In this document: piece after piece, positions 2,267 to 59,208 of the stretch
Position numbering within the stretch: position 1 is the first letter of the stretch
Layout of the letters: the number at the start of each line of letters is the position of its first letter
Source of the DNA: Flavobacteriales bacterium
GTDB taxonomy: Bacteria; Bacteroidota; Bacteroidia; NS11-12g; UBA955
Direction of reading: 5' to 3'
Assembly: GCA_947447955.1 (NCBI GenBank)
Contig: CANFLS010000010.1
Location: 1 to 64,000, forward strand
DNA: 64,000 bases
Program-made: the position numbers and the translations under genes
The notes under the pieces: model-generated
Told to the model about the DNA's origin: nothing
Seen by the model: only the letters and a program-made list of their open reading frames with translations
Databases searched by the model: none

Positions 2267-2339
2267 AATTTTTATTCGTAGTAATTTCAGGTTGAGGGAA
2301 ATAAGATGTGAGATGCATTGAAAAATTAGTCTTTAATAT

Positions 2340-2347
2340 TAAATTTG
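2340..2347 (+). promoter_or_regulatory. -7 promoter element TAAATTTG, 3 nt before the ATG at 2351
   Basis: Exact TAnnTTTG match. Its position supports the ATG at 2351, in a different frame from the long open frame, as the true start of the hydrolase gene. Confidence 0.5.
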
Positions 2348-2350
2348 TTT

Positions 2351-3195
2351 ATGAAAAAACTGATAATAAGCATTTTACCAATGCTGGTTTTTTATCGGCA
2401 TGTAAAACAACACAAAGCACAGAAAATGATAGTGCCTTTCAGATTACCAAAACCATTGTAACTGATAGTCTTTCGGTGGGTGTGGTGATTGATAAGCCGA
2501 AGGGAACTTCTTTTGATGTTCTTATGGTTTTTCATGGTACAGTTTCGTACGATAGCCTTATATTGGATGCTGCTCAAAATACGCTCAATGGTTTTAAGCA
2601 AATATTGGATAAAAAAGATATGATGATTGTTAGCGTTGCCTATCCTGAGGAGAGTTTGTTGATGGGCGACAATTTGAAATACGCTGAAGTTGCCTTATTG
2701 CGGGTTAAAAACAAAGCGGCAACAGAACTTGGGATTAATATTAAAAAGGTATTTTTGGCTGGACATTCACAAGGTGCCTATGTGGTAACCCGCTTGAACA
2801 CAATGCATGAAACAAATGGGGTTATTGCCAATGCTCCGGGGCCGTTAAATTTAGTTTTTCGATGTAAGTTGGAAGAAGATGGCAAAATTGCAAATAGTGC
2901 GGTTTGCAATTTGATGAAAAGCAAATATGGAACAACAACAGTTAACCCGGATGCTTATCAATCGAGATCATTACTCAAATTTACAAGTGGTTATAAATCG
3001 GATATCTTGTTTGTACAGGGCTTGGATGATACCCAAATTCAAATAACATCTTGGCCTTTATTTATGCAGAAAGTGACAGATTGCATTGATTGTAAAAAAG
3101 TACAGGTATACGAGGTTTCAGGTTTTGGGCACGAATCATTGTTTGAAAATCCAAATGCGAGATTAGAGTTTAACCGATTTATCTCTGAGCGATAA
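2351..3195 (+). CDS. Alpha/beta hydrolase lipoprotein with an apparent frameshift in the signal peptide
   Basis: The catalytic part carries the alpha/beta-hydrolase nucleophile elbow GHSQG, preceded by strand KKVFLA, an early MVFHGT strand with an oxyanion-type HG, and a late GFGHES that would supply the histidine. The likely activity is an esterase, lipase or peptidase on the cell surface. The long frame can be read from an ATG at 2308, but that gives a charged N-terminus leading abruptly into LSAC. The ATG at 2351, one frame away and next to a -7 element, gives MKKLIISILPMLVF and would join LSACKTT if the T6 run at 2388-2393 had seven Ts. That makes a textbook lipoprotein signal with lipobox LSAC. 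Either the base is missing by error or mutation, or expression needs slippage. Confidence 0.7.
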
Positions 3196-3202
3196 AATTG
3201 GT

Positions 3203-3361
3203 TTAGACATTTCTGGTGATCGTTATCTCGCTTTTTTTGCGTTTGCTTGATTTAACAGCTTCTTCATATACTTTTATTTGTCTTTTGATTTCAGGCATAG
3301 CTTTATCCATCTGTTTCAGATAATAGGCAACTCTTTCTTCAGTTGATGAAAATTCTGTCAT
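3203..3361 (-). CDS. Small charged protein of unknown function (52 aa)
   Basis: A 52-codon frame on the minus strand from ATG at 3361 to TAA at 3203. The product starts MTEFSSTEERVAYYLKQ and is rich in Lys, Glu and Arg, with a middle helix-like segment (YLKQMDKAMPEIKRQIKVYEEA) and a basic KRKK stretch. There is no membrane segment or signal peptide. Its stop lies 7 nt past the hydrolase stop, so the two genes are convergent. I do not recognise a family. The composition looks like a real soluble protein rather than a chance frame, but support is only from composition and length. Confidence 0.45.
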   Translation of the reverse strand: MTEFSSTEERVAYYLKQMDKAMPEIKRQIKVYEEAVKSSKRKKSEITITRNV

Positions 3362-3402
3362 AATATGAAGTTACTACATAGTAATTAATAAACAACAACA
3401 AA

Positions 3403-3428: not shown

Positions 3429-3483
3429 GAACTGATATGAAAATTGAGATTTATAAAATGGAAGTGATATTTTTGTTTCTTTA

Positions 3484-3885: not shown

Positions 3886-3981
3886 GTTTATCAGATTTAA
3901 AGTTAAATTTGAAAAAGCACTTTTTTACAAATTCGCTCTCTGTTCTACTTCATTAACCACTGAAAACACTGGTAAAGGCAT

Positions 3982-4201: not shown

Positions 4202-5125
4202 ATGAGTTTGTTAGTAATTGGTTCTGTGGCATTTGACGCAATCGACACCCCCTTCGGGTCTACTGGAAAAATTGTTGGAGGCGCCGCCTCTTACATCGCT
4301 TTGGCCACTTCTCTCCTCCATAAACACGTTGGTTTGGTGGCTGTAGTTGGCGAAGATTTCGATTTTGACTTCATAAAATCCCTCAATAATAGAAATGTAG
4401 ATACCACCGGACTACAAATTAAACAAGGTGAAAAGTCATTCTTCTGGCATGGTAAATACCATATGGACATGAATTCTCGCGATACCTTGGTTACCGAGTT
4501 GAACGTGTTGGCCGACTTCGACCCAATTATCCCTCAAAATTGGTCAAGCCCAGAATATGTAATGCTTGGGAATTTAAGTCCTCAGGTTCAATTAACTACC
4601 TTAAATCGTTTGTCCGAAAAACCAAAGTTGGTGGTTCTTGATACCATGAATTTTTGGATGGATATTGCCCTCGACGATTTAAAAGCAGTGTTGAAAAAAG
4701 TGGATGTGCTTACAATCAACGACGAAGAAGCCCGCCAATTAAGCGGTGAATACAGTTTGGTGAAAGCTGCCCGCGTTATTCGTGAAATGGGACCACAAAC
4801 ATTGATCATTAAAAAAGGCGAACATGGTGCGTTGTTGTTTGGTGAAAACAATCAAATTTTCTTCTGTCCTGCTTTGCCATTGGAAAGTGTTTTCGATCCA
4901 ACAGGTGCGGGAGATACTTTTGCTGGTGGATTTATTGGTTTCTTGGCTTCTGTGGGAAGAACAGATTTCGAAGCAATGAAAACTGCCATCATTTACGGTA
5001 GCGCGATGGCTAGCTTCTGCGTTGAAGAATTTGGAACTACCAAATTGGCTTCGATTACCAAAGCCGACCTTGATGCGCGTTTGGAGCAATTCAAATCGCT
5101 TATGGGTTATGAAATAGTTGAATAA
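4202..5125 (+). CDS. PfkB/ribokinase-family sugar kinase
   Basis: About 307 residues. The N-terminal GGAASYIALATSLL is the Gly-Gly substrate-side motif of PfkB kinases, and DPTGAGDTFAGGFIGFLAS near residues 236-254 is the C-terminal signature with the anion hole (GAGD) and catalytic Asp. It phosphorylates a hydroxyl of a sugar or nucleoside using ATP in the cytoplasm; ribose, adenosine and fructose-type substrates are all possible. Two ATGs, at 4196 and 4202, are in frame; the second begins MSLLVIGS, directly at the first beta strand. A TACCTTTG element at 4146-4153 gives a leader of about 40 nt. Ends at a strong shared terminator. Confidence 0.9.
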   Translation: MSLLVIGSVAFDAIDTPFGSTGKIVGGAASYIALATSLLHKHVGLVAVVGEDFDFDFIKSLNNRNVDTTGLQIKQGEKSFFWHGKYHMDMNSRDTLVTELNVLADFDPIIPQNWSSPEYVMLGNLSPQVQLTTLNRLSEKPKLVVLDTMNFWMDIALDDLKAVLKKVDVLTINDEEARQLSGEYSLVKAARVIREMGPQTLIIKKGEHGALLFGENNQIFFCPALPLESVFDPTGAGDTFAGGFIGFLASVGRTDFEAMKTAIIYGSAMASFCVEEFGTTKLASITKADLDARLEQFKSLMGYEIVE

Positions 5126-5204: not shown

Positions 5205-7121
5205 TTACTTGATGAGTTCGTAGATATTCGAAGATTCACCTTCAATACTTAGTGTTGTTCCCAATGCAGAAATTTCTCCGGTAATTACATTTTTTAATTT
5301 TGTATAGCCATTTGTAACCTCTGCAAATCTGTTCATATTCACGTCTGATTTTTCTTTGTTTTGACTGTAAATGCACAATACTGCATCATTTTCATGATGT
5401 TTGGCATAGGCATAAATGCCATTGATGCCAGTAAACTGAGTCATTTTACCCTCCGAAATTGCCTTCTGCGTTTGGCGATATTTGGCCAAGGTTTTAATGA
5501 AGTTAAAAGCTTCGTTTTCTTTTGCGTTTCTGTCTTCTGGTTTGAACTTGTTTTTTTCGTCAGCCGACCATCCCCCAGGAAAATCAAAGCGAACATATGC
5601 ATCGCTTTCTTTGGTAGTACCTGTCATTAGAATTTCGGTGCCATAATAAATGCATGGCAATCCTCTCAAAGTAAGTAGCATCATTTGACAACGTTTCCAA
5701 GCATTGAAATCTTCATTTACCACACTATAAATTCTCGACAAATCGTGGTTGTCTAAAAAGGTGCAGTTTTTATTCGGATCTTGATATAAATAATCGTCAA
5801 TGAGAGTCAGGTATAATTTGTTTAATCCTTCAACCCATCCAAAAGGTTTGGTTGCAGTTTCTTGCATGGCCCAGCAAAGCACAAAATCTGTTACCCCTGG
5901 CAATTGATTTTTCTCAAATCCCTTGATGTTGTTTTTTGTAAAAGCGGCTTGAACAGCGCTGGTTTGCACCCAAGTTTCTCCGTAGATGGTGAACTTAGGA
6001 TATTCTGAAAGAATCATTTCGCACAAGTGATTCATGTAGTTTTGATCGGGGTAGGGGTAGGTGTCAATTCTGTAGCCAGATAAACCTGCGGTTTCTATCC
6101 ACCACAAATACAATTGGTCTAAATATTTTGCAATATGTGTATTTTTTTGATTGTAATCGGGCATTGTTTTAACAAATGCGCCGTCGAAATTTAGGTTCTT
6201 TTCTTGAATGGAAGCGTAAGGATCCATTACCGTTGTTGCTCTAAAATTAGTTTGAATGAACGAATCTCGGTAATTAAACCACCCCGTATCGTAGTTATTG
6301 TACATCCAATGGTTGTTTCCAGTGTGATTTGGAATAATATCCATGACCATTTTAAGGCCGTGTTTTTTCATTTCTTGATTGAGGGATATATACTCTGCGT
6401 TGCTTCCAAAACGGGGATCAATTTTATAATGATCGGTAACGGCATATCCATGAAAGCTTTCTTCGGCTTGGTCGTTTTCTTGAACGGGATTCAGCCACAA
6501 TGTTGTTACTCCCAAGTCCTTCAAATAATGAATTTTGCTTTTGATGCCGGCTAAATCTCCGCCGTGTCTTTTTTTCAATGCAGCACGGTCAACCGGTTCG
6601 TTGAATTGCATCATTGCATTGTCGTTTGTTTTATCACCATTGCAAAATCTATCAGGAAAAATCAAATAGGTCACATCAGCTGGTGTAATGGGCACAAATA
6701 AATTGGCAGTGCGGCTTTTTAATTCATAATTGAAGCCAAAATCTTTGATGTATCTGTTGGGATTTTTATCGATACTCGAAGCTAGAAATGTAATGATTCC
6801 TGGTTTTGTTTTGAGGGATATTTTGAGGTTAAGGTAAGCAATATGTCTATTTGCTGTTTTAGTTACGGAAAGTAATGCTACACCCTCATAAGGTTGTAAT
6901 GATATATTGAACAAATCAATATTTTCTGCATGAAGAATAACTTCTAATGTGGTGTCCTTAAATCCAATATACCAAGAAGGGGGTGCAATTTGGTAAATGT
7001 CTTTTCGGGGCTGAACATTTGATTGGAGGGGTAAAGTTTGTGATGATGTTTGAGAAAATACGGGAACACTAGTAAATAGGGCGGCTATGGCTGCTAAAGG
7101 AATGATGAATAAACTTTTCAC
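5205..7121 (-). CDS. Secreted GH13 alpha-amylase / neopullulanase-type glucosidase
   Basis: 638 residues with a Sec signal peptide (about residues 1-23, ending VFSQ), an N-terminal beta-sandwich like that of cyclomaltodextrinases (~35-145), a GH13 barrel from about 150, and a small C-terminal beta domain. All four GH13 regions are present: DIIPNH (261-266), GYRIDTYPYP with the nucleophile D353, YGETW with the acid E382, and FLDNHD with D457. It should hydrolyse alpha-1,4 links of starch, pullulan or cyclodextrins in the periplasm, as SusA does. The start is GTG at 7121, set by a near-consensus promoter 4 nt upstream. Divergent from the T9SS binding protein at 7214, a probable partner. Confidence 0.92.
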   Translation of the reverse strand: MKSLFIIPLAAIAALFTSVPVFSQTSSQTLPLQSNVQPRKDIYQIAPPSWYIGFKDTTLEVILHAENIDLFNISLQPYEGVALLSVTKTANRHIAYLNLKISLKTKPGIITFLASSIDKNPNRYIKDFGFNYELKSRTANLFVPITPADVTYLIFPDRFCNGDKTNDNAMMQFNEPVDRAALKKRHGGDLAGIKSKIHYLKDLGVTTLWLNPVQENDQAEESFHGYAVTDHYKIDPRFGSNAEYISLNQEMKKHGLKMVMDIIPNHTGNNHWMYNNYDTGWFNYRDSFIQTNFRATTVMDPYASIQEKNLNFDGAFVKTMPDYNQKNTHIAKYLDQLYLWWIETAGLSGYRIDTYPYPDQNYMNHLCEMILSEYPKFTIYGETWVQTSAVQAAFTKNNIKGFEKNQLPGVTDFVLCWAMQETATKPFGWVEGLNKLYLTLIDDYLYQDPNKNCTFLDNHDLSRIYSVVNEDFNAWKRCQMMLLTLRGLPCIYYGTEILMTGTTKESDAYVRFDFPGGWSADEKNKFKPEDRNAKENEAFNFIKTLAKYRQTQKAISEGKMTQFTGINGIYAYAKHHENDAVLCIYSQNKEKSDVNMNRFAEVTNGYTKLKNVITGEISALGTTLSIEGESSNIYELIK

Positions 7122-10135: not shown

Positions 10136-11401
10136 TTAACGGGTTAAAGTTTCGTCCCTACCTGGACCCATTGAAATGACACCAATTTTGGCTCCAATGT
10201 AGCTTTCTACAAAAGCCACATAATCTTGGAAAGATTGATCCATTTTTTCAAAGCCACCAGACAGTTGAATGTCTTCACTCCATCCCTCAAAATCATTGTA
10301 AACAGGAGTAATATCTGCACTGCAAAGATTTGCTGGCACTTGGTCTGTGTTGTTTCCATTGATGGTATAGGCAGTTGCCGCAGAAATGCTTTCAAGGCCG
10401 TTAAGAACATCGCCTTTCATCATAATTAACTCATCAACACCGTTTAACATGCAAGTGTATTTCAATGCTACCAAATCTAACCAACCTGTTCTGCGTTTAC
10501 GGCCTGTAGTTGCACCAAATTCATTGCCTTTTTGGCGTAAAAACTCACCCAAATCATTGTCTAATTCAGTAGGGAAAGGTCCAGAACCAACCCTTGTACA
10601 ATATGCTTTGAAAATACCGTAAACTTTGCCAATGTACTTTGGAGCTACACCCAATCCTGTGCAAACGCCACCTGTTAAGGTGTTGCTCGATGTAACGAAA
10701 GGATAAGTGCCAAATTCAACATCAAGCATACTTCCTTGCGCACCTTCTGCCAAGATTTTTTTACCTTCTTGAATGCATTGGTGAATGAAGTATTCGCTAT
10801 TGATTAATTGGTGTGTTTTCAAGAATTCAAGTGCAGAGAAGAACAATTCTTCTTCTTTGGCTAAATCGAAATCTGAAAATCCTAAAAATTCAATTTGTTT
10901 TAAGTGATCTTCAACCGTTTTTCTGTAACGGTCATTGAAGTCGGCTTCCAAAATATCACCAACACGCAAACCAGATCTTCCGATTTTGTCGCGGTAAGTT
11001 GGACCAATACCTCTCAAGGTGCTGCCAATTTTGGCATCGCCTTTTGCATTTTCAGATGCAGCATCTAAAATTCTGTGTGTAGGTAGAATCAAATGTGCTT
11101 TTTGAGAAATAAGTAAGCGGTCTTTATAGTCGGGACATTCATTTACAATGCGACCAATTTCTTCGCGCAAACGAACTGGATCAATTACAACACCATTTCC
11201 AATAAGGTTAATGGTTTCTTTTCTGAAGATACCCGATGGAATGGTATTCAAAACGAACTTTTTTCCTTCAAATTCTAAAGAATGTCCAGCATTTGGTCCA
11301 CCTTGGAAACGAGCAACTACTTGATAGTTTGGAGTAAGGTAGTCGGCAATCTTTCCTTTGCCTTCGTCGCCCCATTGAAGACCTAAAATTACATCAATCA
11401 T
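10136..11401 (-). CDS. purA: Adenylosuccinate synthetase
   Basis: 421 residues, the normal bacterial length. The N-terminal signature LQWGDEGKGKIADYL holds the GTP loop and catalytic Asp; NAGHS (residues 37-41) contains the conserved His; later motifs include GIGPTYRDK, QGSMLDVEFGTYPFVTSSNT and the C-terminal SMGPGRDET. It joins IMP and aspartate using GTP, the first step from IMP to AMP in the cytoplasm. Lies 21 nt downstream of the Fur-family gene and 9 nt upstream of the FAH-fold gene on the same strand, so all three are likely one operon. Confidence 0.98.
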   Translation of the reverse strand: MIDVILGLQWGDEGKGKIADYLTPNYQVVARFQGGPNAGHSLEFEGKKFVLNTIPSGIFRKETINLIGNGVVIDPVRLREEIGRIVNECPDYKDRLLISQKAHLILPTHRILDAASENAKGDAKIGSTLRGIGPTYRDKIGRSGLRVGDILEADFNDRYRKTVEDHLKQIEFLGFSDFDLAKEEELFFSALEFLKTHQLINSEYFIHQCIQEGKKILAEGAQGSMLDVEFGTYPFVTSSNTLTGGVCTGLGVAPKYIGKVYGIFKAYCTRVGSGPFPTELDNDLGEFLRQKGNEFGATTGRKRRTGWLDLVALKYTCMLNGVDELIMMKGDVLNGLESISAATAYTINGNNTDQVPANLCSADITPVYNDFEGWSEDIQLSGGFEKMDQSFQDYVAFVESYIGAKIGVISMGPGRDETLTR

Positions 11402-15938: not shown

Positions 15939-16553
15939 ATGAATAAAGAATATTGGGATGAAAGATACGCCCGCAGCGAGTATGCTTATGGCGAAGCCCC
16001 AAATGTGTTTATAGAAGAAACTCTTCCTAATTATCCGATAGGTAGAATTTTGTTTCCTGCAGATGGAGAGGGACGAAATTCAGTTTATGCAGCCAAATTG
16101 GGTTGGACGGTTTCCGCGTTTGATTTAAGTGATACTGGTAAGCAAAAAGCAATGGATTTGGCAACTGCATTCGATGTTACAATCGACTACGAGGTGAGCG
16201 GTGCTGAAGAAATAAACTATGAACTTGAAAGCTTCGATGCAATTGCCTTTGTATTTGCTCACTTTCCAGCTGCTGTGAAACAACAATATAATAAAAAAAT
16301 GTTGGATTTCCTAAAACCAGGCGGTTTGGTGTTTTTTGAAGCATTTGGTAAAGACCACATTGAATACCAGAAAAAATATCCCTCAATAGGAGGACCAAAA
16401 GACGTAGATATGCTTTTTTCGAAAGAGGAATTGATGGATTCATTTGCAGATTTTGAAGTAATTTTATTGGAAGTGGTTGAGCAAACGTTGAATGAGGGAC
16501 CATTTCACCAAGGTGTGGGATCTGTAATTCGTTTCATTGGAAGGAAAAAATAA
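15939..16553 (+). CDS. Class I SAM-dependent methyltransferase
   Basis: 204 residues, opening YWDERYARSEYAYGEAPN, a head typical of the TehB/thiopurine-like group. The SAM loop is ILFPADGEGRNSVYAA (motif I, with Asp-Gly-Glu-Gly in place of the usual Gly-x-Gly), then VSAFDLS (acidic ribose-binding residue), SFDAIAFVFAHFP (motif IV) and LKPGGLVFFEAF. Substrate unknown; small molecules are more likely than nucleic acid. Three nt downstream of the ALDH gene and last of the gpmI operon. Confidence 0.85.
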   Translation: MNKEYWDERYARSEYAYGEAPNVFIEETLPNYPIGRILFPADGEGRNSVYAAKLGWTVSAFDLSDTGKQKAMDLATAFDVTIDYEVSGAEEINYELESFDAIAFVFAHFPAAVKQQYNKKMLDFLKPGGLVFFEAFGKDHIEYQKKYPSIGGPKDVDMLFSKEELMDSFADFEVILLEVVEQTLNEGPFHQGVGSVIRFIGRKK

Positions 16554-17678: not shown

Positions 17679-19433
17679 ATGTATCGTTCGCATACTTGTG
17701 GTGAATTAAGAGTTTCTCATGTTGGAGAAACAGTAACGTTGGCGGGTTGGGTTGCCAAATCTCGTGTTATGGGCAGCAGCATGGCTTTTGTGGATATCCG
17801 CGATCGTTATGGAATTACCCAATTGGCTTTCAACGAAGCTTATAGCAAAGAATTATTGGAAAAAGCCAGTACCTTGGGTCGTGAATTTGTAATTCAAGCA
17901 ACTGGAAAGGTTGCAGAGAGAAGTGCAAAAAACGGACAACTTGAAACTGGCGATATAGAAATTATTGTTGAATCTTTAACAATATTAAATGAGTCTAAAA
18001 CACCTCCGTTTACCATTGAAAATGAAACAGATGGTGGTGACGATATTCGTATGCAATATCGCTATTTAGATTTAAGAAGGGACATCGTTCGTAAGAACCT
18101 AGAATTGCGTCACAATTTGGCACAATCTATTCGCTCGTATTTGTCTAATCAGCAATTTTTAGAAGTTGAAACTCCTGTTTTAATTAAGAGTACTCCTGAA
18201 GGAGCCCGTGACTTTGTAGTTCCAAGTAGAATGAACAAAGGTCAATGGTATGCCCTTCCTCAAAGTCCACAAACATTTAAGCAATTGCTTATGGTGAGTG
18301 GTTTTGATAGATATTTTCAAATTGTAAAATGTTTTAGAGACGAAGATTTGCGTGCAGACAGACAGCCTGAATTCACCCAAATAGATTGTGAAATGAGCTT
18401 TGTAGAAAGAGAAGACATTATCCAAACTTTTGAGGGAATGATGAAGCAGCTATTTTCTGATGTAAAAGGAATTACTTTTGGCGATTTTCCAAGAATGAGC
18501 TATGCAGATGCCATGAAATATTATGGTTCTGACAAGCCAGATATTCGTTTTGGAATGTCTTTCGTTGAATTAAAAGCACCAGGAAATGAGTTGGATGTAG
18601 TTTCAGGTAAAGATTTTGGTCTATTTGACAATGCCGAGGCTGTAATTGGTATTTGTGCTACCGGAGCTGCTGTTTATACCCGCAAACAAATTGATGCCCT
18701 GGTTGAGTATGTAAAACGTCCTCAAATTGGCGCAACAGGAATCATCTATTGCCGAGTGGAAGCTGATGGCAGTTTGAAATCTTCTGTAGATAAATTCTAT
18801 GATGCCGATGCATTGTTGAAATGGAAAGAGGCAATGAATGCACAACCTGGCGATTTGATGTTGATTATGGCCGGTGGTTTAGATAAAACCAGAAAGCAAT
18901 TGAACGAACTTCGTTTGTTTGTTGGTTCTGACCTTGGTTTAAAAAATCCTCATGATTTTAAACCATTGTGGGTAGTTGATTTTCCATTGTTAGAATGGGA
19001 TGAAGATCATAACCGTTTCCACGCAATGCACCATCCATTTACCAGTCCTTTGCCAGAAGACAGAGAATTGATGAATTCTGATCCGGGCAAAGTGAGAGCC
19101 AATGCCTATGATATGGTAATTAATGGTGTTGAAATTGGTGGTGGATCAATTCGTATTTTCGATAAACAATTGCAGTCTGAAATGTTTGATTTGCTAGGGT
19201 TTACCAAAGAAGATGCACAATATCAATTCGGATTCTTAATGAATGCATTTGAATATGGTGCTCCTCCACATGGTGGATTGGCCTTAGGTTTCGACCGTTT
19301 GTGCAGTATGCTTGGCGGAAGTGACAGCATTAGAGACTTTATTGCATTCCCTAAAAACAATAGTGGTAGGGATGTAATGATTGATGCACCGAGTACGTTG
19401 TCTGCAGCTCAGTTGAAGGAGTTGGAGTTATAA
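17679..19433 (+). CDS. aspS: Aspartyl-tRNA synthetase
   Basis: 584 residues of the bacterial type. An N-terminal OB fold reads the anticodon ([23 protein letters not shown]), motif 2 is [18 protein letters not shown], the bacterial GAD insertion lies between motifs 2 and 3, and motif 3 is [21 protein letters not shown] is the flipping/KMSKS-like loop region. It charges tRNA-Asp in the cytoplasm. Whether it also charges tRNA-Asn cannot be decided here. The stop lies directly next to a tandem repeat tract. Confidence 0.98.
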
Positions 19434-19438
19434 TTGGG

Positions 19439-23289: not shown

Positions 23290-23835
23290 TTAACCAAAAA
23301 TAAGTTCGATTTCGTTTTTAATCATACGCAATCCTTTTTCATGAGGGATTTCGCCTTTTTCTTGTAACGCATTTATCAATGCAACGCAATAATCGCTTGC
23401 AGTTCCGTTAGGATCTACTGTGCGTTCAACTTGTTGTAACATGATCATGGTTTGTTCTTTCACTATCTTTATCATATTCCAAGTTTGTTCACTCACATAA
23501 ACTTGTTGCGATAAATTATAATTGAACTCTTCTTGAATTGCCTTCATTGCCAAAATTTTAAATTCAGCAGGTGTGGTATTTGGATTTCCGTAAGTTTGAA
23601 TAAGGGTAGGGATGCTCGTTCTCTCCAAAAGGATTGACAATCTTTCATATGCCTGTAGTTTCAATTTGCCTAAAGCTTCATTGTTGTTTTTGAGGGACTC
23701 AATTTTAACCATTTGAATAATGGTTTGGGTGTGTGCCTTAAACATTGACTTTGCAAACATGATAATGATAATGGTTATTGCCAGAATGAAACTGGTTGCA
23801 TACAGTATATAGTTAAAGATTTCGGGATTTTTCAT
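23290..23835 (-). CDS. Single-span membrane protein of unknown function
   Basis: From ATG 23835 the product is 181 residues: a short head, one transmembrane helix ([20 protein letters not shown]), then a cytoplasmic helical domain with charged surface ([32 protein letters not shown]). I recall similar Bacteroidota proteins without known function. The longer frame from 23892 is less likely, since TATCTTTG at 23847-23854 lies 11 nt before 23835. One nt separates its stop from the mutase start, so they are co-transcribed; a functional link is not evident. Confidence 0.7.
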
Positions 23836-25568: not shown

Positions 25569-25574
25569 ATTCGG

Positions 25575-47200: not shown

Positions 47201-48571
47201 ACTGATGAATCAACTGGCGAAATCAAACAAACTGAAATCGTATTGGGTCGTTCAGGTGAAATTAGAATCTTAGATCCTAAAACCAAAACTATTATCACAA
47301 GTTTCAACGTGCCTTATGGTGCTCAACTTTTGGTAAAAGAAGGAATGAAGGTGAAAAAAGGTGATAAAATGTGTACTTGGGATCCATTTAACACGTTGAT
47401 TATTTCTGATATTGATGGTACTGTTACTTACGAGCAAATCATTGAGGGAATTAACATGCGTGAAGAAGGTGATGAGCAAACAGGATTGTCAGAATTGGTA
47501 ATCATTGAAAGCAAAGACAAAACCAAAGTACCAGTGATTCGTGTTGAAGGTGAAGAAGGAACAGTTAAAACGTTCAATATGCCTTTGAAAGCAATTTTGG
47601 TAGCTAAGAAAAACGCCGTAATTAAAGCAGGTGATATTTTGGCTAAAATTCCAAGAAGTGCTACAAGAACCCGTGATATCACAGGTGGTCTTCCTCGTGT
47701 AACTGAATTATTTGAGGCTAGAAATCCTTCAAATCCAGCAGTAGTTGCTGAAATTGATGGTATCGTAACCTATGGTATTTCAAAAAGAGGTAACCAAGAA
47801 ATTATCATTAACTCTAAAGATGGTGAAGTGAAGCACTACCAAGTTGCTTTGTCTAAACACATTTTGGTGCATGATGGTGATTATGTTCGCGCAGGTCAAC
47901 CTTTGTCTGATGGTGCTATTACGCCTCAAGATATCTTAAGAATTGAAGGTCCAGCTTCAGTACAACGTTATGTATTGAATGGAATTCAAGAAGTTTACAA
48001 CCTTCAGGGTGTAAAAATCAACGATAAGCATATTGAAGTAATTGTACGTCAAATGATGCAAAAAATGGAAGTTATGGATCCAGGAGATACTCGTTTCCTT
48101 GAAAGTGAAGCTGTTGATAAATGGACTTTACAGAAAGAAAATGACTGGATTTATGACAAGAAATTTGTAAGCGATGCAGGTGAAAGTACCGAAATGCATG
48201 CAGGACAGATTGTAAGTTTGAAAGACTTACGTCAAGAAAACAGCGCATTGCGTCGTCAAGATAAAAAAGTGGTACAATACCGTGATGCAGTTCCTGCAAC
48301 AGCAACTCCAATTTTGCAAGGTATTACCAAAGCTTCGTTAGGTACTCAAAGCTTTATGAGTGCTGCTTCTTTCCAAGAAACTACCAAAGTTTTGAATGAA
48401 GCTGCAATTTCTGGTAAAGTAGATGAGTTAAGAGGTTTGAAAGAAAATGTAATCGTAGGTCACTTAATTCCAGCGGGTACAGGTATGCGTCGTTTCGACA
48501 ACGTAGTAACTGGCTCACTAGAAGAATACGAACGTTTGATGGCAACCAAATACGAAGAAGAGGAAGCTTAA
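44273..48571 (+). CDS. rpoC: RNA polymerase beta' subunit
   Basis: 1432 residues. The N-terminal zinc site [19 protein letters not shown], the catalytic Mg motif [12 protein letters not shown], the trigger loop region ([16 protein letters not shown]) and the second zinc cluster with CVTCE-type spacing ([17 protein letters not shown]) are all seen. A long insertion-bearing jaw region follows (approx. 1000-1250), and the C-terminus is acidic (TKYEEEEA). Ends the operon at a strong terminator. Confidence 0.98.
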
Positions 48572-48853: not shown

Positions 48854-50251
48854 ATGAATTTTGAAAGTAATTTGCAACCAATGAATTCTTACTCTCCGAC
48901 TTGGGCTGTTACTTTAAATACCTTTTTTGTTTTTCTAACTCTTTTGAGCTTTTGTAATACGGTGTCGGCTCAATTTGATTCCTCTCATACTCCTGAAATT
49001 TCGGAAATTAAACGATTGCCAGATGATGAATTGGCGGACAAAAAGGAAGGACTTTACTTTACAGGTGTTCCTGATTTTAGTGCCGATCCACTAAACGGAT
49101 TTGGCTATGGATTGGAAGGAACTCTTTTCTTTAATGGAAAAAAATCAGACCATCTTTTTGCGTATACCCCTTATCGCCAAAAATTGGATATTGCCCTATT
49201 TAATACCACAAAAAATGCCAAAGAATTGTCGTTGAAATTAGATATTCCCTACATAGGAAATACGCCATGGCGATTGAGAACCGAAATCATATTAGAAACC
49301 AATCCCAACTTGGTGTATTTTGGAAATACATCGAAAAGCTTGGAGGGGTTAAATTTCTATGAAAATGGTGATAGTAGTGCAAAATATATTCAAAATGGGA
49401 GCTATTCCGGTTATGAAAAAAGCCTGGTAAATAACCGTGCTCATTATAACGACTTTATTAAAAAGGAATCTGTAATTAATGTTAGCCTCGAAAGAAGTTT
49501 AATGGAAGGTAAAGCCCGTTGGTTGATTGGATATGAATTCGCCAAGTTCAATAACGCATCAATTGCAAATTTTGGCAATGTGGTGAAGGACTCTAAGTTG
49601 TTAGAAGATGTAAATAAAAATGGCGTTTTGGGTTTAGGTGATGGACATATTAATATGGTTCAAATTGGATTGGTTTATGACACCAGAAATTTGGAAACTG
49701 ACCCTAGCAATGGCTATTTTGCAGAGATTACCCATGAAACATCCCTCAAAATAATTGGATCCGGATTCGATTTTAGTAAAACCTTTGCTCAAATAAGGGG
49801 ATATCATCAAATATTAAAAAAGTACTTCAAAAAGCAAGTTTTCGCTTGGAGAACTGGTGCTGGTATTACCTCTGGCAATGCCCCGTTCTTTGAATATGCC
49901 GATGAATGGAGTTCAGAAGGCAGTATAGAAGGTTTGGGTGGCACCAATACCCTAAGAGGTTATAAACAAAGCAGGTTCATGGCTCCGATAATGAATTTTA
50001 ACAATTTTGAATTGCGAAGCCAATTTTGGTCTGGGAAAGCCTTTCATCAACACCTCGCAATGTCTGCGGTTCCTTTTTTTGATTTTGGGGGATGTTGGGA
50101 TAACTTCTCCAAGTTGAACACTTCAAACTATAGATACAACAGCGGACTAGGGTTAAGAATTGCGTGGAATGTGAATACAATCTTGAGATTTGATTATGCG
50201 GTTTCTAAAGAAGACAATCAATTCTTCTTTCAAATGAATCATACGTTTTAA
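48854..50251 (+). CDS. Omp85-family outer-membrane protein lacking POTRA domains
   Basis: 465 residues. A long-headed signal peptide (~1-40, ending TVSAQ) leads directly, after some 20 residues, into beta-barrel sequence. The barrel has alternating strands throughout and the loop-6 motif GGTNTLRGYKQSRF with the Arg-Gly-Tyr hallmark of Omp85 proteins. It ends in the outer-membrane insertion signature FFFQMNHTF. BamA and TamA have several N-terminal POTRA domains; none fits here, so this is a noNterm-type Omp85 protein with unknown cargo. Confidence 0.82.
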   Translation: MNFESNLQPMNSYSPTWAVTLNTFFVFLTLLSFCNTVSAQFDSSHTPEISEIKRLPDDELADKKEGLYFTGVPDFSADPLNGFGYGLEGTLFFNGKKSDHLFAYTPYRQKLDIALFNTTKNAKELSLKLDIPYIGNTPWRLRTEIILETNPNLVYFGNTSKSLEGLNFYENGDSSAKYIQNGSYSGYEKSLVNNRAHYNDFIKKESVINVSLERSLMEGKARWLIGYEFAKFNNASIANFGNVVKDSKLLEDVNKNGVLGLGDGHINMVQIGLVYDTRNLETDPSNGYFAEITHETSLKIIGSGFDFSKTFAQIRGYHQILKKYFKKQVFAWRTGAGITSGNAPFFEYADEWSSEGSIEGLGGTNTLRGYKQSRFMAPIMNFNNFELRSQFWSGKAFHQHLAMSAVPFFDFGGCWDNFSKLNTSNYRYNSGLGLRIAWNVNTILRFDYAVSKEDNQFFFQMNHTF

Positions 50252-50264: not shown

Positions 50265-52025
50265 CTACTTCAAATATCCCTCTTGGCTATTTTTATATAA
50301 ATTGGTGTAAACGCCATTCAAACTGATAAGTTTTTCGTGATTTCCGCGCTCGATAATTTGTCCTTTATCAATTACAATAATTTCATCGCAGTTTTGAATT
50401 GTGCTTAATCTGTGCGCAATAACAATGGCTGTTCTGTTTTTCAATAAGAGTTGAATTGCGTTTTGAATCATTTCTTCAGTATGTGAATCAATAGAACTGG
50501 TAGCCTCATCCAAAACAATCATTTCAGGCTTCATGGTGAGTGCCCTAATAAATGAAATCAACTGTCTTTGTCCTTGTGAAAGCGATAAGCCTCTTTCCTT
50601 TACATTGAAATCAAATCCTCCAGGTAATTTTTCAATAAAATCGTAAGCCCCAATTTCTCTGGCAACTTTTTCAATTTCAGAAGAACTTACCTCCTGGTTT
50701 TTAAGCACCAAGTTGCTTTTGATACTCCCCGAAAACAGAAATACGTCTTGTAAAACAACGGCAATTTTCTTTCTAAGCGTTGGCAGATGATAGTCGTTTA
50801 CATTTCTTCCATCAATATAAATATCACCTTTTTGGTGTTGGTACATTTGGGTAACCAAATTGGCAATGGTAGTTTTTCCGCTACCAGTAGCTCCTACAAT
50901 TGCTAACGACTTGCCTGCTTCGATGGTAAATGAAATGTCCCTCAATATCCAATTTTCATCATTGTATGCAAACCAGATATTTTTGAATTCAATATCTCCA
51001 TTTATTTTTTGAGGGATATAACTTCCTGTTTTTTCAATGTTTTCTTCAGAATCGATAAGCAAGAAAATCCTTTCGGCACTTACAATTCCCATTTGGATAT
51101 TGTTAAAGCGATCAGCAATTGCTCGAACAGGTCTAAAAAACAAGTTGATAAACATGATAAATGCGGTTAGTTCACCCAAGTGGATTGCTTGGTGAAATAC
51201 AGCTTGGCTTCCATAACTTACAATAATTGCAAACGCAACTGCAATTAACGCTTCAACAATGGGAAAGAATATAGAATAATAAAAAATACTTCTAATGTTG
51301 GCATCCTTATGTTTTTTATTGATGGCCTCAAATTTTTGATATTCACGTTCTTGCTGATTGAACAGTTGAACGATTTGCATCCCGGTTATTCTTTCTTGTA
51401 AGAACGCATTTAAATTGGCTACTTGATTTCGCACTTCTTGAAAAGTATCGCGGATGCCTTTTCTAAATTTGTTGGCGCTGTACATCAAAATAGGAATCAC
51501 CAATAAGGTTAAAAATGTAAGTTTTACATTGATGTAAAACATACAAACCAAGATTGCGATAATTTGAATGAGATCACCAAGTATGGTGATGATTCCTGAT
51601 GAAAATAAATCTGTAATGGTTTGAATGTCGGAGATACTTCTGGTTACTGCTGTTCCAACAGGTGTTTTGTCAAAAAAGCTTAATTTCAATTGAATCAGAT
51701 GGTCGTAAACAAATTGCCTGAGTTTTAAAATAATGGATTGGGCAATTCTCTCCGATAAATAGGCATTTACAAATCCAAGTCCCGCTTGTATTACCAACCA
51801 AATAACCAAAATGCCACACCAAAAAGACAGCAAGTGGAATTTGTTTGCTAAAATTACTTGGTCAATTACAATTTTATATAAGTAGGGTTGGGTTGCAGTA
51901 AGTAAACTTTGGATGATTGTTAAGGAAATAGCGAGTACAATCCATGTTTTTTGAAATTGTGCCAATTTGAGCAATCTCAATAATAAATGCCATTGTGAGG
52001 TGAATTTGGTTTTCTTCTCGGTCAT
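50265..52025 (-). CDS. ABC exporter, fused membrane and ATPase domains (MsbA type)
   Basis: 586 residues: six-helix membrane domain (~20-320) followed by an ATPase (~340-586). Walker A is GATGSGKTT, the Q loop is VVLQDVFLFSGS, the signature is LSQGQRQ (Gly to Gln at its third position), Walker B is MIVLDEATSSID and the switch His is in IVIAHRLS. It works as a dimer exporting lipid, drug or peptide. A TAGTTTTG element at 52033-52040 lies 7 nt before the ATG. Convergent with the Omp85-like gene. Confidence 0.93.
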   Translation of the reverse strand: MTEKKTKFTSQWHLLLRLLKLAQFQKTWIVLAISLTIIQSLLTATQPYLYKIVIDQVILANKFHLLSFWCGILVIWLVIQAGLGFVNAYLSERIAQSIILKLRQFVYDHLIQLKLSFFDKTPVGTAVTRSISDIQTITDLFSSGIITILGDLIQIIAILVCMFYINVKLTFLTLLVIPILMYSANKFRKGIRDTFQEVRNQVANLNAFLQERITGMQIVQLFNQQEREYQKFEAINKKHKDANIRSIFYYSIFFPIVEALIAVAFAIIVSYGSQAVFHQAIHLGELTAFIMFINLFFRPVRAIADRFNNIQMGIVSAERIFLLIDSEENIEKTGSYIPQKINGDIEFKNIWFAYNDENWILRDISFTIEAGKSLAIVGATGSGKTTIANLVTQMYQHQKGDIYIDGRNVNDYHLPTLRKKIAVVLQDVFLFSGSIKSNLVLKNQEVSSSEIEKVAREIGAYDFIEKLPGGFDFNVKERGLSLSQGQRQLISFIRALTMKPEMIVLDEATSSIDSHTEEMIQNAIQLLLKNRTAIVIAHRLSTIQNCDEIIVIDKGQIIERGNHEKLISLNGVYTNLYKNSQEGYLK

Positions 52026-53218: not shown

Positions 53219-55234
53219 ATGCATTTTCAACAGCCAGGTTTTTTGTGGGGACTTCTGTTAATATTACTTCCAATTATTATTCATTTATTCCAGTTTAGAA
53301 AGTTTAAAACAATTTACTTTCCTGGGGTTTTTAGATTGGTAGAACAATTAAATGCATCAAAAAAGCAAAAAACAATTAAACATTGGTGGCTATTAATCAC
53401 GCGATCTTTGGCAATTTTCTTTTTGGTGATGTCTTTCTCAATGCCTTCTTGCAACGAACAGCATCAAGTAACAACGCTCGAAAACAAAATAGTAGTTGTC
53501 ATAGACTGCTCTCCGAGTATGATGCTCCAAAACAATGGGGAAGTTTTGTTGGAAAAAGCAAAAAACGCAGGACGTAAAATTATTAAAAATGCAAATGCGA
53601 ATACAAAATTTGCAATCATTGCCAATCATTCTCAAATGTCGCAACAGTGGCTCGATTCCCGAGCAGCATTGAATTTGATTAGTGAAATTCAGGGAAATCA
53701 AATTCCTGAATCACTTGCAGATTGGATGAAAAATATTGATCCCTTAATTGCCAGTAACGACGGTAGCAATTTATTTGTTTATCTTGTTACCGATGTCAAA
53801 CAAGATGTTTTTGAGGGATATAAGAACGTCAATTATACCAATGCAATTTGGAAGGTTGTAGAAATTGAATCTACAGACCCAATTAATTTCTCAATTGATT
53901 CTGCCTATATTACTAATCCATGGAATACCAATAACAAATCGCAAACAATTACAACCCAAGTGTCATGTTCACAAACTGATTTTGTGGGAAGTTTGAATGT
54001 TCAATTGATATCGGATGATAAAATTATTGGAAACAGCAAAGCTGAATTTAACAAGCAAAACAAATTAGAAGTAAATTTCTTACTGCCCAATGTATCACTT
54101 AATAAATTGCAATTGCGCCTTGAAGACAATGCAATTCAAGCAGATAATGCTTTATTGCTCTATTTGAATAAAAGCGAGGAATTTCCTTTGGTTGTGAGTG
54201 GGAATAATCCTTTCGTAAATAAGCTAATATCCAGCCAATCCATTTTTCAGGTAACTCCGTTTTCTGGATTTGATAAAATGAATCCGGAAGTTAAAACTGC
54301 TGTTATTTGTAATGCGGAGGCTATCAATACCAAAACGCTATCAAGTATATCTGAGTTAACACAAAAAGGGGTTAATGTTGTTTGTATCCCTCAAACGAAA
54401 AACATCAATGTCGATGATTTTTTCGGAATGAAAGTGAAGCTAAAAAAGGAAAAGTATGCCATCCTATCAAATGGTTTGAACAACGATATTTTCAAAAGTG
54501 CATTTACAGAGGCCATTGACGAAAAAACGCAAATGCCTTTTGTTACGGAGTATTTTCAAATCGAAAAGCAAATTGACCCTAACTGGCAAACCATTTTGAC
54601 ATTAGAAAACAACGACCCAATTTTACTGAAAAAAGAATCGGGGAATGGTACAATTTGGTTGTGGTTGTCTGATTTTGAATCGGGTAGTGTTTCCTTTGCC
54701 AAATCATCTTTGTTTTTGCCTTTGTTTACACAATTGTTTATGGGAAGTTTCCACGAATCCAAATCCATACTTGGATTTTTAAATTCAAACAACCCAATGC
54801 CCATTTCTCATGTGAAGGAATTTAACATTGAAAAAGGTGCAGTTTTAAGAAATGAGCAATCTGAATGGATGGTGAATTTAGAAATGAGTGAATATGGACT
54901 TGCTTTTAATACACAATTCCAATCCAACAAACCAGGTTACTACGGTTTGTGTCCCTCAAAAGAAAACAAATTCAAGGAAATAGTAGCACTAAATGCACTT
55001 AGAACTGAAAAAGATTTAAAATCAATTTCTTTAGAAAGAAAAAAAGAAATGCAACAGTTGGGTGTTAAATTTGTGGAAGAACAACAAATGTTGAATAAGT
55101 TAACAATGATTCAAGCTGATAATTCACTGTGGCGATTGTTTTTATGGCTATCGGCCCTGTTTTTTGCAGTGGAAGTGGTATTGTTGGTGTTGAAATATAA
55201 AAATAAACAAACGAATTCGGTAAAAACTTTATGA
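53219..55234 (+). CDS. BatA-domain / vWA-like membrane protein
   Basis: 671 residues from ATG 53219. It starts with the BatA N-terminal motif (FLWGLLLILLPIIIHLFQFRKFK), a membrane helix followed by PGVFRLVEQ. A second helix ends in MPSCNEQ. The vWA domain begins VVIDCSPSMML with a DxSxS metal site (~100-110). A long periplasmic region follows, and the last helix (LFLWLSALFFAVEVVLLVL) returns to the membrane. Such proteins in Bacteroidota are linked to envelope stress and aerotolerance. The next gene overlaps its stop by 4 nt. Confidence 0.85.
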   Translation: MHFQQPGFLWGLLLILLPIIIHLFQFRKFKTIYFPGVFRLVEQLNASKKQKTIKHWWLLITRSLAIFFLVMSFSMPSCNEQHQVTTLENKIVVVIDCSPSMMLQNNGEVLLEKAKNAGRKIIKNANANTKFAIIANHSQMSQQWLDSRAALNLISEIQGNQIPESLADWMKNIDPLIASNDGSNLFVYLVTDVKQDVFEGYKNVNYTNAIWKVVEIESTDPINFSIDSAYITNPWNTNNKSQTITTQVSCSQTDFVGSLNVQLISDDKIIGNSKAEFNKQNKLEVNFLLPNVSLNKLQLRLEDNAIQADNALLLYLNKSEEFPLVVSGNNPFVNKLISSQSIFQVTPFSGFDKMNPEVKTAVICNAEAINTKTLSSISELTQKGVNVVCIPQTKNINVDDFFGMKVKLKKEKYAILSNGLNNDIFKSAFTEAIDEKTQMPFVTEYFQIEKQIDPNWQTILTLENNDPILLKKESGNGTIWLWLSDFESGSVSFAKSSLFLPLFTQLFMGSFHESKSILGFLNSNNPMPISHVKEFNIEKGAVLRNEQSEWMVNLEMSEYGLAFNTQFQSNKPGYYGLCPSKENKFKEIVALNALRTEKDLKSISLERKKEMQQLGVKFVEEQQMLNKLTMIQADNSLWRLFLWLSALFFAVEVVLLVLKYKNKQTNSVKTL

Positions 55235-57064: not shown

Positions 57065-57861
57065 TACGCGAAATTTCTAGCTTCCAAAATGATTGGGTAA
57101 AACACATTAAAGTTTTACAAGAGAAAAATCGTGCACGTAAAAAGGAAGGTGTTTTTCTTGTTGAGGGACTTATTGAAATTAAATTGTGTATTGAAGCAGG
57201 ATACATTATTAAAGAACTTGCTTTTTGTAAAGAATTGATTTCGGAGGGACATTTGTCTGAGAGAATAGGGATTGATTTAGAAACAATTGCGAACATTTAT
57301 TTACTTTCCTCCGCCGTTTTTGAATCTTTGGCTTACAGAGGTGGGGTAGAGAACGCCATTGCCATTGTTGCTTATCCTGAAAATAGACCTTCTTTGGATG
57401 ATTTGAAATCTGACGGATTGTACCTAGTTGCTGAATCAGTTGAAAAACCTGGTAACTTGGGTGCTATTTTAAGAACCGCCGATGCTTCGAAAATGGATGC
57501 GATTATTGTTTGTGATGAATTGCTAGATATATTTCATCCAAACGTAATTAGAAATAGTTTGGGATGTGTGTTTACCGTTCCAGTAATTGTTTGTAGTTCT
57601 AATGATGCTATTGACATGTTTAAAAAGAAAAATATTCAAATTTTTTCGACTTTTATGGATCAATCAATTTCATTATTTGAGGCCAACTTAACTGGCGGAG
57701 TTGCACTTGTTGTAGGAGCGGAACATCAAGGTTTGTCGGCTTCTTGGAGAAATGTTGGACAAAATATCAATATTCCCATGCTTGGTTTTGTTGATAGTTT
57801 GAATGTTTCGGTGGCTTCTGCCGTTTTAATGTACGAAGCAAGGCGTCAACGGATTAAATAA
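57061..57861 (+). CDS. SpoU/TrmH-family RNA 2'-O-methyltransferase
   Basis: 266 residues. An N-terminal substrate-binding domain (NDWVKHIKVLQEKNRARKKEGVFLVEG, residues ~10-36) precedes a knotted SPOUT domain with the three motifs: ESVEKPGNLGAILRTADA, VVGAEHQGLS and DSLNVSVASAVLMYEARRQ. It methylates a ribose 2'-OH in 23S rRNA or tRNA; the target nucleotide is not evident. Its start overlaps the DUF4199 stop by 4 nt. Confidence 0.92.
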   Translation: MIREISSFQNDWVKHIKVLQEKNRARKKEGVFLVEGLIEIKLCIEAGYIIKELAFCKELISEGHLSERIGIDLETIANIYLLSSAVFESLAYRGGVENAIAIVAYPENRPSLDDLKSDGLYLVAESVEKPGNLGAILRTADASKMDAIIVCDELLDIFHPNVIRNSLGCVFTVPVIVCSSNDAIDMFKKKNIQIFSTFMDQSISLFEANLTGGVALVVGAEHQGLSASWRNVGQNINIPMLGFVDSLNVSVASAVLMYEARRQRIK

Positions 57862-57867
57862 ATTTCG

Positions 57868-57875
57868 TATTATTG
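57868..57875 (+). promoter_or_regulatory. -7-like element TATTATTG, 4 nt before a GTG start
   Basis: Seven of eight positions fit TAnnTTTG; tatt separates it from the GTG at 57880. Confidence 0.45.
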
Positions 57876-57879
57876 TATT

Positions 57880-59208
57880 GTGCAAAAAATAGCAATTCTT
57901 GGCGCGGGCAGAAGTGCCGGTTATTTAATCGACCATTTGGCCCTTGTTTCTAAAGCGAAAAGCTGGGAATTGAAAGTATACGACAATAATTTTGAGGGAT
58001 ATTTTTCGTCATTCGGGGAAAATCCAAATTGCATATTTGAGAATTCTAATTTGGCTGATCTCAAAATATTAGAATCTATTGTTAAATACTCAGATCTTAT
58101 CATTAGTGTTTTGCCTCCCTCAATGCATTTTGGGGTGGCTCGTTTTTGTGTTTTGCATGGAACACATTTGGTAACCGCTTCCTATATTTCTCCAGAAATG
58201 AAGGCATTGCACGATGTGGCGGTTGAAAATGATGTAGTACTTTTGAATGAGTTGGGACTTGATCCTGGTATTGATCACCTATCTGCTGCGAAAGCAATTT
58301 TTGAGATACAAGAAAAAGGCGGTGAGATAGTTGGATTTGAAAGTTATTGTGGGGGATTAATTACTGAAAATGATTGCATGGGCAATCCTTGGAAGTATAA
58401 GTTTACTTGGAATCCAAGAAATGTTGTTTTGGCGGGGCAGGGAGGTAAAAGCAAGTGGCTTGCCAACGGTGAGTTACATCAAATTGCGCCTTCAGACGTT
58501 TTTAAACACATACAAAGGTTCGATTTTTCTGAATTAGGTCAAATTGAAGCTTATCCTAATAGAGATAGTTTAAATTACATTGATCAGTATCATTTACTTG
58601 GAGTAAAAACAATGCTCCGTGGAACCTTGAGAAGGGTTGGTTATTGCGATGCTTGGCAAATATTAATAGATGCAGGCTTTACCGATGATGAAAAAGGTCA
58701 AGATTTGGTTTTTGCCAACAGAAGAGTTTGGTTCGAATTTATTACAAAGTGCAAATCAGTTGAGGATTGGTTTATACATTTGAATCTAACCAATAATCAA
58801 ATAATAGAGAAATTAAAGTTCCTAGAATTAGATTTAGAAAATACCGTACCATTAGAAAATTTAAGTCATGCGGCTCATTTGCAAAATATCCTTCAAGATA
58901 AATGGAAATTGAATGAATCCGATAAAGATGAAGTATTGATGGTGCATAAAATTGATTATACATTGAACAATCTGGCTTTTCGGTATTCTGCAACTTTGCG
59001 CATCATTGGCGAAGGAGGAGCACATACTGCAATGGCTAAAACTGTAGGTTTGCCTTTGGCATTGGGTGCAATTGCAATTCTTGATGGAATTATTAAAGAA
59101 CGAGGTTGTTTAATGCCATTTAACGTTGTTTGGGGGAAGCAGATATTGTTGCAGTTGGAAGAACTTGGAATACAATTTGCAGAGTCGACACAACAAATTA
59201 ATAATTAA
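57880..59208 (+). CDS. Saccharopine dehydrogenase-like protein (glutamate-forming type)
   Basis: 442 residues starting at GTG. The N-terminal Rossmann loop ILGAGRSAGYLIDHLA is followed by the ISVLPPSMH and NELGLDPGIDHLSA motifs of LYS9/AASS saccharopine dehydrogenases, then SYCGGL and a C-terminal region ending HTAMAKTVGLPLALGA, also characteristic. In lysine catabolism the enzyme converts saccharopine to aminoadipate semialdehyde and glutamate with NAD(P). A partner LKR gene is not in the window. Confidence 0.88.
   Translation: MQKIAILGAGRSAGYLIDHLALVSKAKSWELKVYDNNFEGYFSSFGENPNCIFENSNLADLKILESIVKYSDLIISVLPPSMHFGVARFCVLHGTHLVTASYISPEMKALHDVAVENDVVLLNELGLDPGIDHLSAAKAIFEIQEKGGEIVGFESYCGGLITENDCMGNPWKYKFTWNPRNVVLAGQGGKSKWLANGELHQIAPSDVFKHIQRFDFSELGQIEAYPNRDSLNYIDQYHLLGVKTMLRGTLRRVGYCDAWQILIDAGFTDDEKGQDLVFANRRVWFEFITKCKSVEDWFIHLNLTNNQIIEKLKFLELDLENTVPLENLSHAAHLQNILQDKWKLNESDKDEVLMVHKIDYTLNNLAFRYSATLRIIGEGGAHTAMAKTVGLPLALGAIAILDGIIKERGCLMPFNVVWGKQILLQLEELGIQFAESTQQINN

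What the first reader, a model, noticed from the sequence alone, without database searches (positions are those of the whole stretch)
2292..58123. Strongly over-represented octamer TTGAGGGA on both strands
By reading through the window I count 24 exact copies. Plus-strand starts: 2292, 6379, 6811, 18430, 23690, 31130, 33105, 47442, 51009, 53811, 57161, 57992. As TCCCTCAA: 4379, 4530, 10283, 16379, 28852, 31781, 34158, 49742, 50938, 54387, 54952, 58116. With about 37% GC, one or two would be expected by chance. All but one are inside genes, in all reading frames (e.g. FEGY, LVEG, IPQ, PSI, LRD), so the constraint is on the DNA and not the protein. Strand is balanced and it does not follow gene direction. 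It is nearly absent from the tuf-rpoC block. A Chi-like recombination word, a methylation or restriction target, or a nucleoid-protein site are possible readings.
Basis: partly seen in the sequence, partly recalled or inferred. Interest (0 to 1): 0.72.

Follow-up and report, generated by a model that had tools for sequence, protein, structure and literature searches.

The report
Uptake-like DNA word in lake Bacteroidota
A short DNA word is scattered hundreds of times through the genome of a freshwater bacterium and kept there far better than chance, with related spellings in sister species; it looks like the self-recognition tags that some bacteria use to take up DNA of their own kind, but in a group where the pili known to read such tags were not found.

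Summary
In detail: TTGAGGGA occurs 24 times in the window (shuffles 2.0) and 889 times in the 2.81-Mb genome (backwards control 41), on both strands equally. The fuller motif is about TTTTGAGGGA(Y)A with A/T-rich flanks. Six species of one Bacteroidota genus have it strongly; related words mark sisters (TTGGGGGA in one, TTCGGGGGA in two, weaker in others). None of 43 relatives from other genera is clearly enriched. Sites are maintained one by one: at 86% DNA identity 75-86% survive, against 35-38% of permuted words; synonymous positions inside the word are 91% conserved, 64% expected. Something reads the DNA itself. Replication polarity is absent, which speaks against Chi. The picture fits DNA uptake sequences. 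The genus has ComEC, DprA, ComF-like and tandem-HHH ComEA-like genes (the HHH gene crosses the window's right edge, comEC lies about 7 kb beyond), while no pilus ATPase passed its cut-off. Best reading: self tag of a pilus-independent transformation system (about 0.55). Uptake is inferred and the receptor unknown; even spacing and inverted pairs, usual for such tags, are missing, and Chi-like or other DNA readers are not excluded.

The parts
2292..2299 (+). TTGAGGGA site (intergenic)
4379..4386 (-). TTGAGGGA site
4530..4537 (-). TTGAGGGA site
6379..6386 (+). TTGAGGGA site
6811..6818 (+). TTGAGGGA site
10283..10290 (-). TTGAGGGA site in purA
16379..16386 (-). TTGAGGGA site
18430..18437 (+). TTGAGGGA site
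23690..23697 (+). TTGAGGGA site
28852..28859 (-). TTGAGGGA site
31130..31137 (+). TTGAGGGA site
31781..31788 (-). TTGAGGGA site
33105..33112 (+). TTGAGGGA site
34158..34165 (-). TTGAGGGA site
47442..47449 (+). TTGAGGGA site, the only one in the tuf-rpoC block
49742..49749 (-). TTGAGGGA site
50938..50945 (-). TTGAGGGA site
51009..51016 (+). TTGAGGGA site
53811..53818 (+). TTGAGGGA site
54387..54394 (-). TTGAGGGA site
54952..54959 (-). TTGAGGGA site
57161..57168 (+). TTGAGGGA site
57992..57999 (+). TTGAGGGA site
58116..58123 (-). TTGAGGGA site
63782..64000 (-). Window part of a tandem helix-hairpin-helix (ComEA-like) gene that continues to contig position 64546; comEC lies at contig positions 70842-72626, outside the window. 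Proposed as part of the uptake machinery, by inference

Best explanation
TTGAGGGA (fuller form about TTTTGAGGGA(Y)A with A/T-rich flanks) acts like a DNA uptake sequence: a self tag that raises uptake of conspecific DNA in natural transformation. Free DNA with the tag would be bound at the surface by an unidentified receptor, pass the envelope without type IV pili, be handled by a tandem-HHH periplasmic protein, enter as single strand through ComEC with ComF, be protected by DprA and recombined by RecA. Because tagged alleles are taken up more often, tags accumulate and are restored in resident DNA, and the spelling drifts with the receptor between clades. Shown: enrichment, related words by clade, site-by-site maintenance at DNA level, absence of polarity, presence of ComEC, DprA, ComF-like and HHH genes, no pilus ATPase over the cut-off.
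For: 889 copies against 41 control. Six same-genus species strongly enriched (G000 889, G007 780, G013 760, G006 558, G004 494, G009 477) and G012 fivefold (171 against 33); 43 of 43 relatives from other genera at most about 2.3 times their control. Related words in sisters: TTGGGGGA 462 against 24 in G012; TTCGGGGGA 181 against 4 in G002, 152 against 7 in G011, 110 against 15 in G005, 80 against 2 in G012, 72 against 3 in G010. The G012 and G002 words came out of a word scan without prior. On a protein tree the six TTGAGGGA species are one clade, G012 its sister, G002 pairs with G011. A/T-rich flanks. Excess of perfect copies 144 against 95 spread over 24 one-mismatch words in G000. Sites kept: 77/102 and 77/90 against 910/2610 and 910/2409 permuted words; synonymous 212/232 against 0.636. 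No polarity. Intergenic density 4.64 against 3.32 per 10 kb in ORFs. ComEC in 12 of 14, ComEA-like HHH protein in 14 of 14, DprA in 11 of 14 genus genomes. A ComF-like gene was found beside a type IX-exported protein gene in 12 of 13 loci examined. Riemerella needs ComEC, DprA, ComF, RecA, an HHH protein and others for transformation (PMC8459023: abstract, sections 19 and 21 read). Three species without clear excess each show a gap: G001 no DprA hit, G008 interrupted DprA, G003 no ComEC hit.
Against: No transformation data; all same-genus genomes are drafts. The readers known or predicted for such tags are type IV pilins, and PF00437 passes its cut-off in 0 of 14 (7 of 14 have weak sub-threshold matches). 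Word and competence genes do not match perfectly: G005 (96% complete) carries weak words but has no ComEC hit; G003 is 77% complete; G004 and G009 have the word but no DprA hit (74% and 58% complete). TTGGGGGA alone runs up to about 4.8 times its backwards control in the order, so its values in G001 (64 against 11), G003 (46 against 15) and G008 (85 against 21) are neither clear excess nor clear absence. Spacing is Poisson-like (CV 1.07 and 1.05) and there is one close inverted pair in 159 sites. In G007 the one-mismatch excess (137) equals the perfect excess (133).
Confidence: 0.55

Rival explanations
1. Chi-like word: a helicase-nuclease of AddAB/RecBCD type reads it at broken ends and switches from degradation to RecA loading.
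For: Density of 1 per 3.2 kb, G-rich core, both strands, mostly genic; a PDDEXK protein is in 14 of 14 genus genomes, in G000 with UvrD helicase domains.
Against: 58%, 51% and 57% of sites lie on the G-rich strand in G000 (92:66), G007 (77:73) and G013 (43:33), where composition alone predicts 66%, 67% and 64%; consecutive sites share a strand in 68 of 155 and 63 of 148 cases, while Chi is described as polarised (PMC8022716, passages read). The PDDEXK protein is also in species without clear excess. PF12705 hits one protein per genome in 13 of 14, and within 9 kb of the G000 copy no other ORF is long enough for AddB.
Confidence: 0.19
2. Site of a chromosome-organising or other intracellular DNA-binding protein, or a methyltransferase target, spread over the chromosome.
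For: Conservation at DNA level and wide spread only require a reader.
Against: Density is similar in the four sampled contigs (2.8 to 4.4 per 10 kb), no regional clustering seen there; restriction or methylation targets are usually not enriched (general knowledge). Not tested with modification or binding data.
Confidence: 0.22
3. Compositional or codon-pair artefact or mutational bias.
For: High-order Markov models absorb the word.
Against: Backwards control 41 against 889, five frames and intergenic sites, synonymous conservation, near background in close genera.
Confidence: 0.03

Closest known systems
Uptake signal sequence (USS) of Pasteurellaceae
   Same: Short non-palindromic core, A/T-rich flanks, clade-specific spellings, genic and intergenic copies (PMC1626085, passages read)
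   Different: Other phylum and sequence, no pilus ATPase over cut-off, weaker flanks on both sides, spacing not even, one inverted pair
DNA uptake sequence (DUS) dialects of Neisseriaceae
   Same: Spelling variants that follow phylogeny (PMC3630211, passages read)
   Different: DUS dialects number thousands per genome (2245 to 5918 in the passages seen) and are bound by ComP; no such reader is known here
Chi
   Same: G-rich octamer, both strands, similar density (recalled for E. coli)
   Different: No polarity, varies within a genus, A/T-rich flanks
Riemerella natural transformation
   Same: ComEC, DprA, ComF-like and HHH genes present; R. columbina prefers its own DNA (PMC7965970, section 16 read)
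   Different: No comparable tag is listed there (its table holds A/T-rich words); orthology of the HHH and surface proteins to the Riemerella ones was not tested
HIP1 of cyanobacteria
   Same: Very abundant octamer
   Different: HIP1 is palindromic (start of abstract seen in the listing, PMC4390886)

Membership tests
DNA uptake sequence (DUS/USS) | Experimentally preferred in DNA uptake | not testable with these tools
   No culture or assay
DNA uptake sequence (DUS/USS) | Strong over-representation of a short non-palindromic word on both strands | tested here: met
DNA uptake sequence (DUS/USS) | Many more perfect than one-mismatch copies | tested here: inconclusive
   Excess over order 3: G000 144 against 95, G007 133 against 137
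DNA uptake sequence (DUS/USS) | Spelling variants following phylogeny | tested here: met
   weak in G005 and G010, deep branches weakly supported
DNA uptake sequence (DUS/USS) | Preference for non-coding DNA | tested here: met
   4.64 against 3.32 per 10 kb, a modest difference without a formal test
DNA uptake sequence (DUS/USS) | Competence genes present | tested here: met
   In G000 ComEC, HHH, DprA and a ComF-like gene; RecA not searched
DNA uptake sequence (DUS/USS) | Type IV pilus machinery carrying the receptor | tested here: not met
   PF00437 over cut-off in 0 of 14; pilin families not searched
DNA uptake sequence (DUS/USS) | Spacing more even than random | tested here: not met
   CV 1.07 and 1.05; that evenness is typical is partly recalled, the passage seen was cut
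DNA uptake sequence (DUS/USS) | Some closely spaced inverted pairs | tested here: inconclusive
   One pair under 60 bp in 159 sites
Chi | Polarity with replication | tested here: not met
   GC skew stands in for the leading strand
Chi | AddAB/RecBCD-type enzyme present | tested here: inconclusive
   UvrD-PDDEXK protein in G000, PDDEXK in 14 of 14, partner not identified
Methylation target | Modified base at the word | not testable with these tools
   No long-read signal

The most novel reading that the evidence does not exclude
A DNA uptake sequence with dialects in Bacteroidota, read by a surface receptor other than a type IV pilin (a candidate is the type IX-exported Calx-beta protein encoded beside the ComF-like gene), so that self-recognition tags evolved independently on a different uptake machine.
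Probability: 0.4. Interest if true: 0.88.

Novelty: new variant of a known kind. Interest (0 to 1): 0.72.

Why it matters
Uptake tags are known from Neisseriaceae and Pasteurellaceae, where the DUS reader is ComP and the predicted USS reader is the minor pilin ComN (PMC12616744, abstract read). A tag system in Bacteroidota without a detectable pilus ATPase would show that self-tagging evolves with other receptors, and would make the unknown outer-membrane step of Bacteroidota transformation testable with a sequence-specific ligand.

Tried and rejected
Chi polarity: not seen. Even spacing and inverted pairs: not found, one pair only. In-place switching of spelling between G000 and G012, G002 or G001 at aligned sites: too little aligned sequence (2.3, 24 and 41 kb), no clear switch. 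G002/G011 site conservation: 2 of 3 and 2 of 2, controls 1 of 2 and 1 of 2, too few. Motif deserts as foreign DNA: low-GC polysaccharide clusters and the rplK-rpoC block are poor in sites, but composition explains part. Observed over order-0 expectation is about 10-fold in G000 windows below 34% GC against 16- to 18-fold above; in G007 4-fold below 31% (2 sites in 11 windows) against 11- to 16-fold above. The type IX-exported protein as a marker of word-bearing species: orthologues in 13 of 14 genomes (partial in G004 and G005; in G011 only the sorting tail matched), species without clear excess included, so not a marker. Its DUF5689 label is weak: the genome search gave it over the cut-off in 3 of 14 genomes only when neighbouring matches are added, and the Pfam scans of the protein at E up to 0.01 did not list DUF5689. 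AlphaFold model mean pLDDT 61, pTM 0.35, not searched further. Text search for the word itself: 1218 papers, the 20 listed unrelated by title.

One search stopped with a script error after printing word tables; one search repeated the rest. In some searches overlapping BLAST hits were dropped. Word scans without prior covered 393 kb of G000, 480 kb of G002, 179 kb of G001, 158 kb of G012, 80 kb of G005, 71 kb of G010 and 40 kb each of G008, G011 and G013; G003, G004, G006, G007 and G009 were not in that scan. In the samples of G005, G010 and G011 the TTGGGGGA or TTCGGGGGA words were not the top words.

Full report
Observation. The octamer count is exact and far above chance: 24 in the window against a shuffle mean of 2.04, 889 in the genome against 41 for the backwards word, 443 to 446 by strand. 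In 457 kb of the genome the profile is T-rich upstream, TTGAGGGA, then mostly T or C, then often A, with A/T-rich flanks. The first position is loosest: CTGAGGGA and ATGAGGGA are also enriched.

Organism. The closest named relatives of a window protein are MAGs titled Flavobacteriales or Bacteroidetes bacterium, with pond and lake names in their titles (one of them, L012, is titled Chitinophaga pinensis). Equal contig lengths tie G007 to JAIYAW01, G013 to CANKVM01, G006 to CAMBFD01, G004 to CAIRMY01 and G009 to CANFVI01. The order was not established; freshwater origin is inferred from titles.

Distribution. Of 57 relatives (G000, 13 same genus, 21 same family, 22 same order), six same-genus species are strongly enriched and G012 about fivefold (171 against 33); the 43 outside the genus stay at or below about 2.3 times their control. 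Of 296 class genomes searched with TTTTGAGGGA (completeness 80% or more, drawn evenly; G000 the only one of this genus), G000 has 464 against 6; elsewhere no count exceeds 82 (control 42, an 8.2-Mb genome), and ratios built on small counts reach 18 to 2.

Related words. A word scan without prior gave G-rich words of the form TTTTGGGGGAT(G) as the top octamers and nonamers in G012, and TTCGGGGGA in G002. Whole-genome counts: TTGGGGGA 462 against 24 in G012; TTCGGGGGA 181 against 4 in G002 and 152 against 7 in G011, weaker in G005 (110 against 15), G012 (80 against 2) and G010 (72 against 3), and 9, 5 and 8 in G001, G003 and G008. TTGGGGGA exceeds its backwards control widely in the order, from about 1 up to 4.8 times, so its values in G001 (64 against 11), G003 (46 against 15), G008 (85 against 21), G010 (131 against 32) and G005 (189 against 39) are not decisive. 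On a tree of the UvrD-PDDEXK protein the six TTGAGGGA species form one clade with G012 as sister, and G002 pairs with G011; deep branches are weakly supported.

Maintenance. In 247 kb aligned between G000 and G007 (86% identity), 77 of 102 G000 sites and 77 of 90 G007 sites are identical in the other genome, against 910 of 2610 and 910 of 2409 permuted words. G013 (33 kb): 14 of 19 and 14 of 15, against 150 of 319 and 150 of 300. G006 (23 kb, 76% identity): 4 of 11 and 4 of 7, against 39 of 209 and 39 of 208. Among codons that stay synonymous, third positions inside the word are unchanged in 212 of 232 cases, against 63.6% for the same codons elsewhere. Raised conservation reaches from about -3 to +12. 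Selection or biased transfer therefore acts on the DNA word.

Not Chi-like. Sites show no polarity beyond composition; in G000 there is a slight tilt to the G-rich strand (92:66), below what composition predicts. The PDDEXK protein occurs in all 14 genomes, with or without the word.

Competence genes. A tandem-HHH protein gene spans 63782-64546 of the contig, crossing the window end, and comEC lies at 70842-72626. The two genes lie within about 8 kb in nine species: G000, G001, G002, G006, G007, G008, G010, G011 and G013. ComEC is found in 12 of 14, DprA in 11 of 14, the small HHH protein in 14 of 14. PF00437, the ATPase family of type IV pili and type II secretion, passes its cut-off in 0 of 14; 7 of 14 have weak matches of 17-21 bits. 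Pilin families were not searched. A 1060-residue protein with Calx-beta domains and a type IX sorting tail is encoded beside a ComF-like gene (phosphoribosyltransferase domain over, zinc ribbon just under the Pfam cut-off) in 12 of 13 loci examined, the thirteenth being a fragment in G004. Its DUF5689 label is weak. Riemerella needs ComEC, DprA, ComF, RecA, an HHH protein and a DUF5689-domain protein, among others, for transformation (PMC8459023; abstract and sections 19 and 21 read), and R. columbina prefers its own DNA (PMC7965970, section 16 read). Orthology to those proteins was not tested.

Gene loss and word loss. G001 (98% complete) has no DprA hit; G008 (82%) has an interrupted DprA beside a lepA full of stops, which may be decay or assembly damage; G003 (77%) has no ComEC hit. 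These are the three species without TTGAGGGA- or TTCGGGGGA-type excess. Against this, G005 (96%) has no ComEC hit but carries weak words, and G004 and G009 have the word but no DprA hit at 74% and 58% completeness. No formal test was made. Pasteurellaceae offer a parallel: H. ducreyi with fewer USS and inactivated competence genes (PMC1626085, passages read).

Verdict. A real, DNA-level, clade-specific genome word with related spellings, best read as an uptake tag; Chi or another DNA reader remains possible. That such a tag is not described in Bacteroidota rests on searches in an open-licence library without preprints; the one relevant paper they listed was PMC7965970.

Noticed in passing
window 19438-19509 and 25568-25829; G000 contig C1 60117-73394 and 126971-136959: 9-bp tandem arrays of G[AG]TTAGAC(N); in the window they lie between ORFs. 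In C1, 16 arrays of three or more units lie within 13 kb, often in pairs about every 1 kb, like spacers of a cassette array. The 40-kb G011 sample has an analogous CCAAAGACC word.
   Followed up: partly
L266 (G008 contig C12 53000-59000): lepA is full of stop codons and the neighbouring dprA match starts only at residue 92; real decay or assembly damage.
   Followed up: partly
L283 13737-19675 (G000 contig C5): ComF-like gene next to a type IX-exported Calx-beta protein gene, kept in 12 of 13 loci examined across the genus.
   Followed up: partly
G000 contig C1 93679-121342; G007 contig C1 141319-159858 and 319513-335767: Low-GC (28-32%) stretches that look like polysaccharide gene clusters (from protein starts, not scanned) and are nearly free of the word.
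   Followed up: partly
G000 contig C1 220709-220730: Single close inverted pair of the word, a perfect hairpin with a T-run, terminator-like.
   Followed up: no
L185 (G000 contig C47): A second PDDEXK match in an open frame of about 928 residues, found only in G000 among 14 genus genomes.
   Followed up: no
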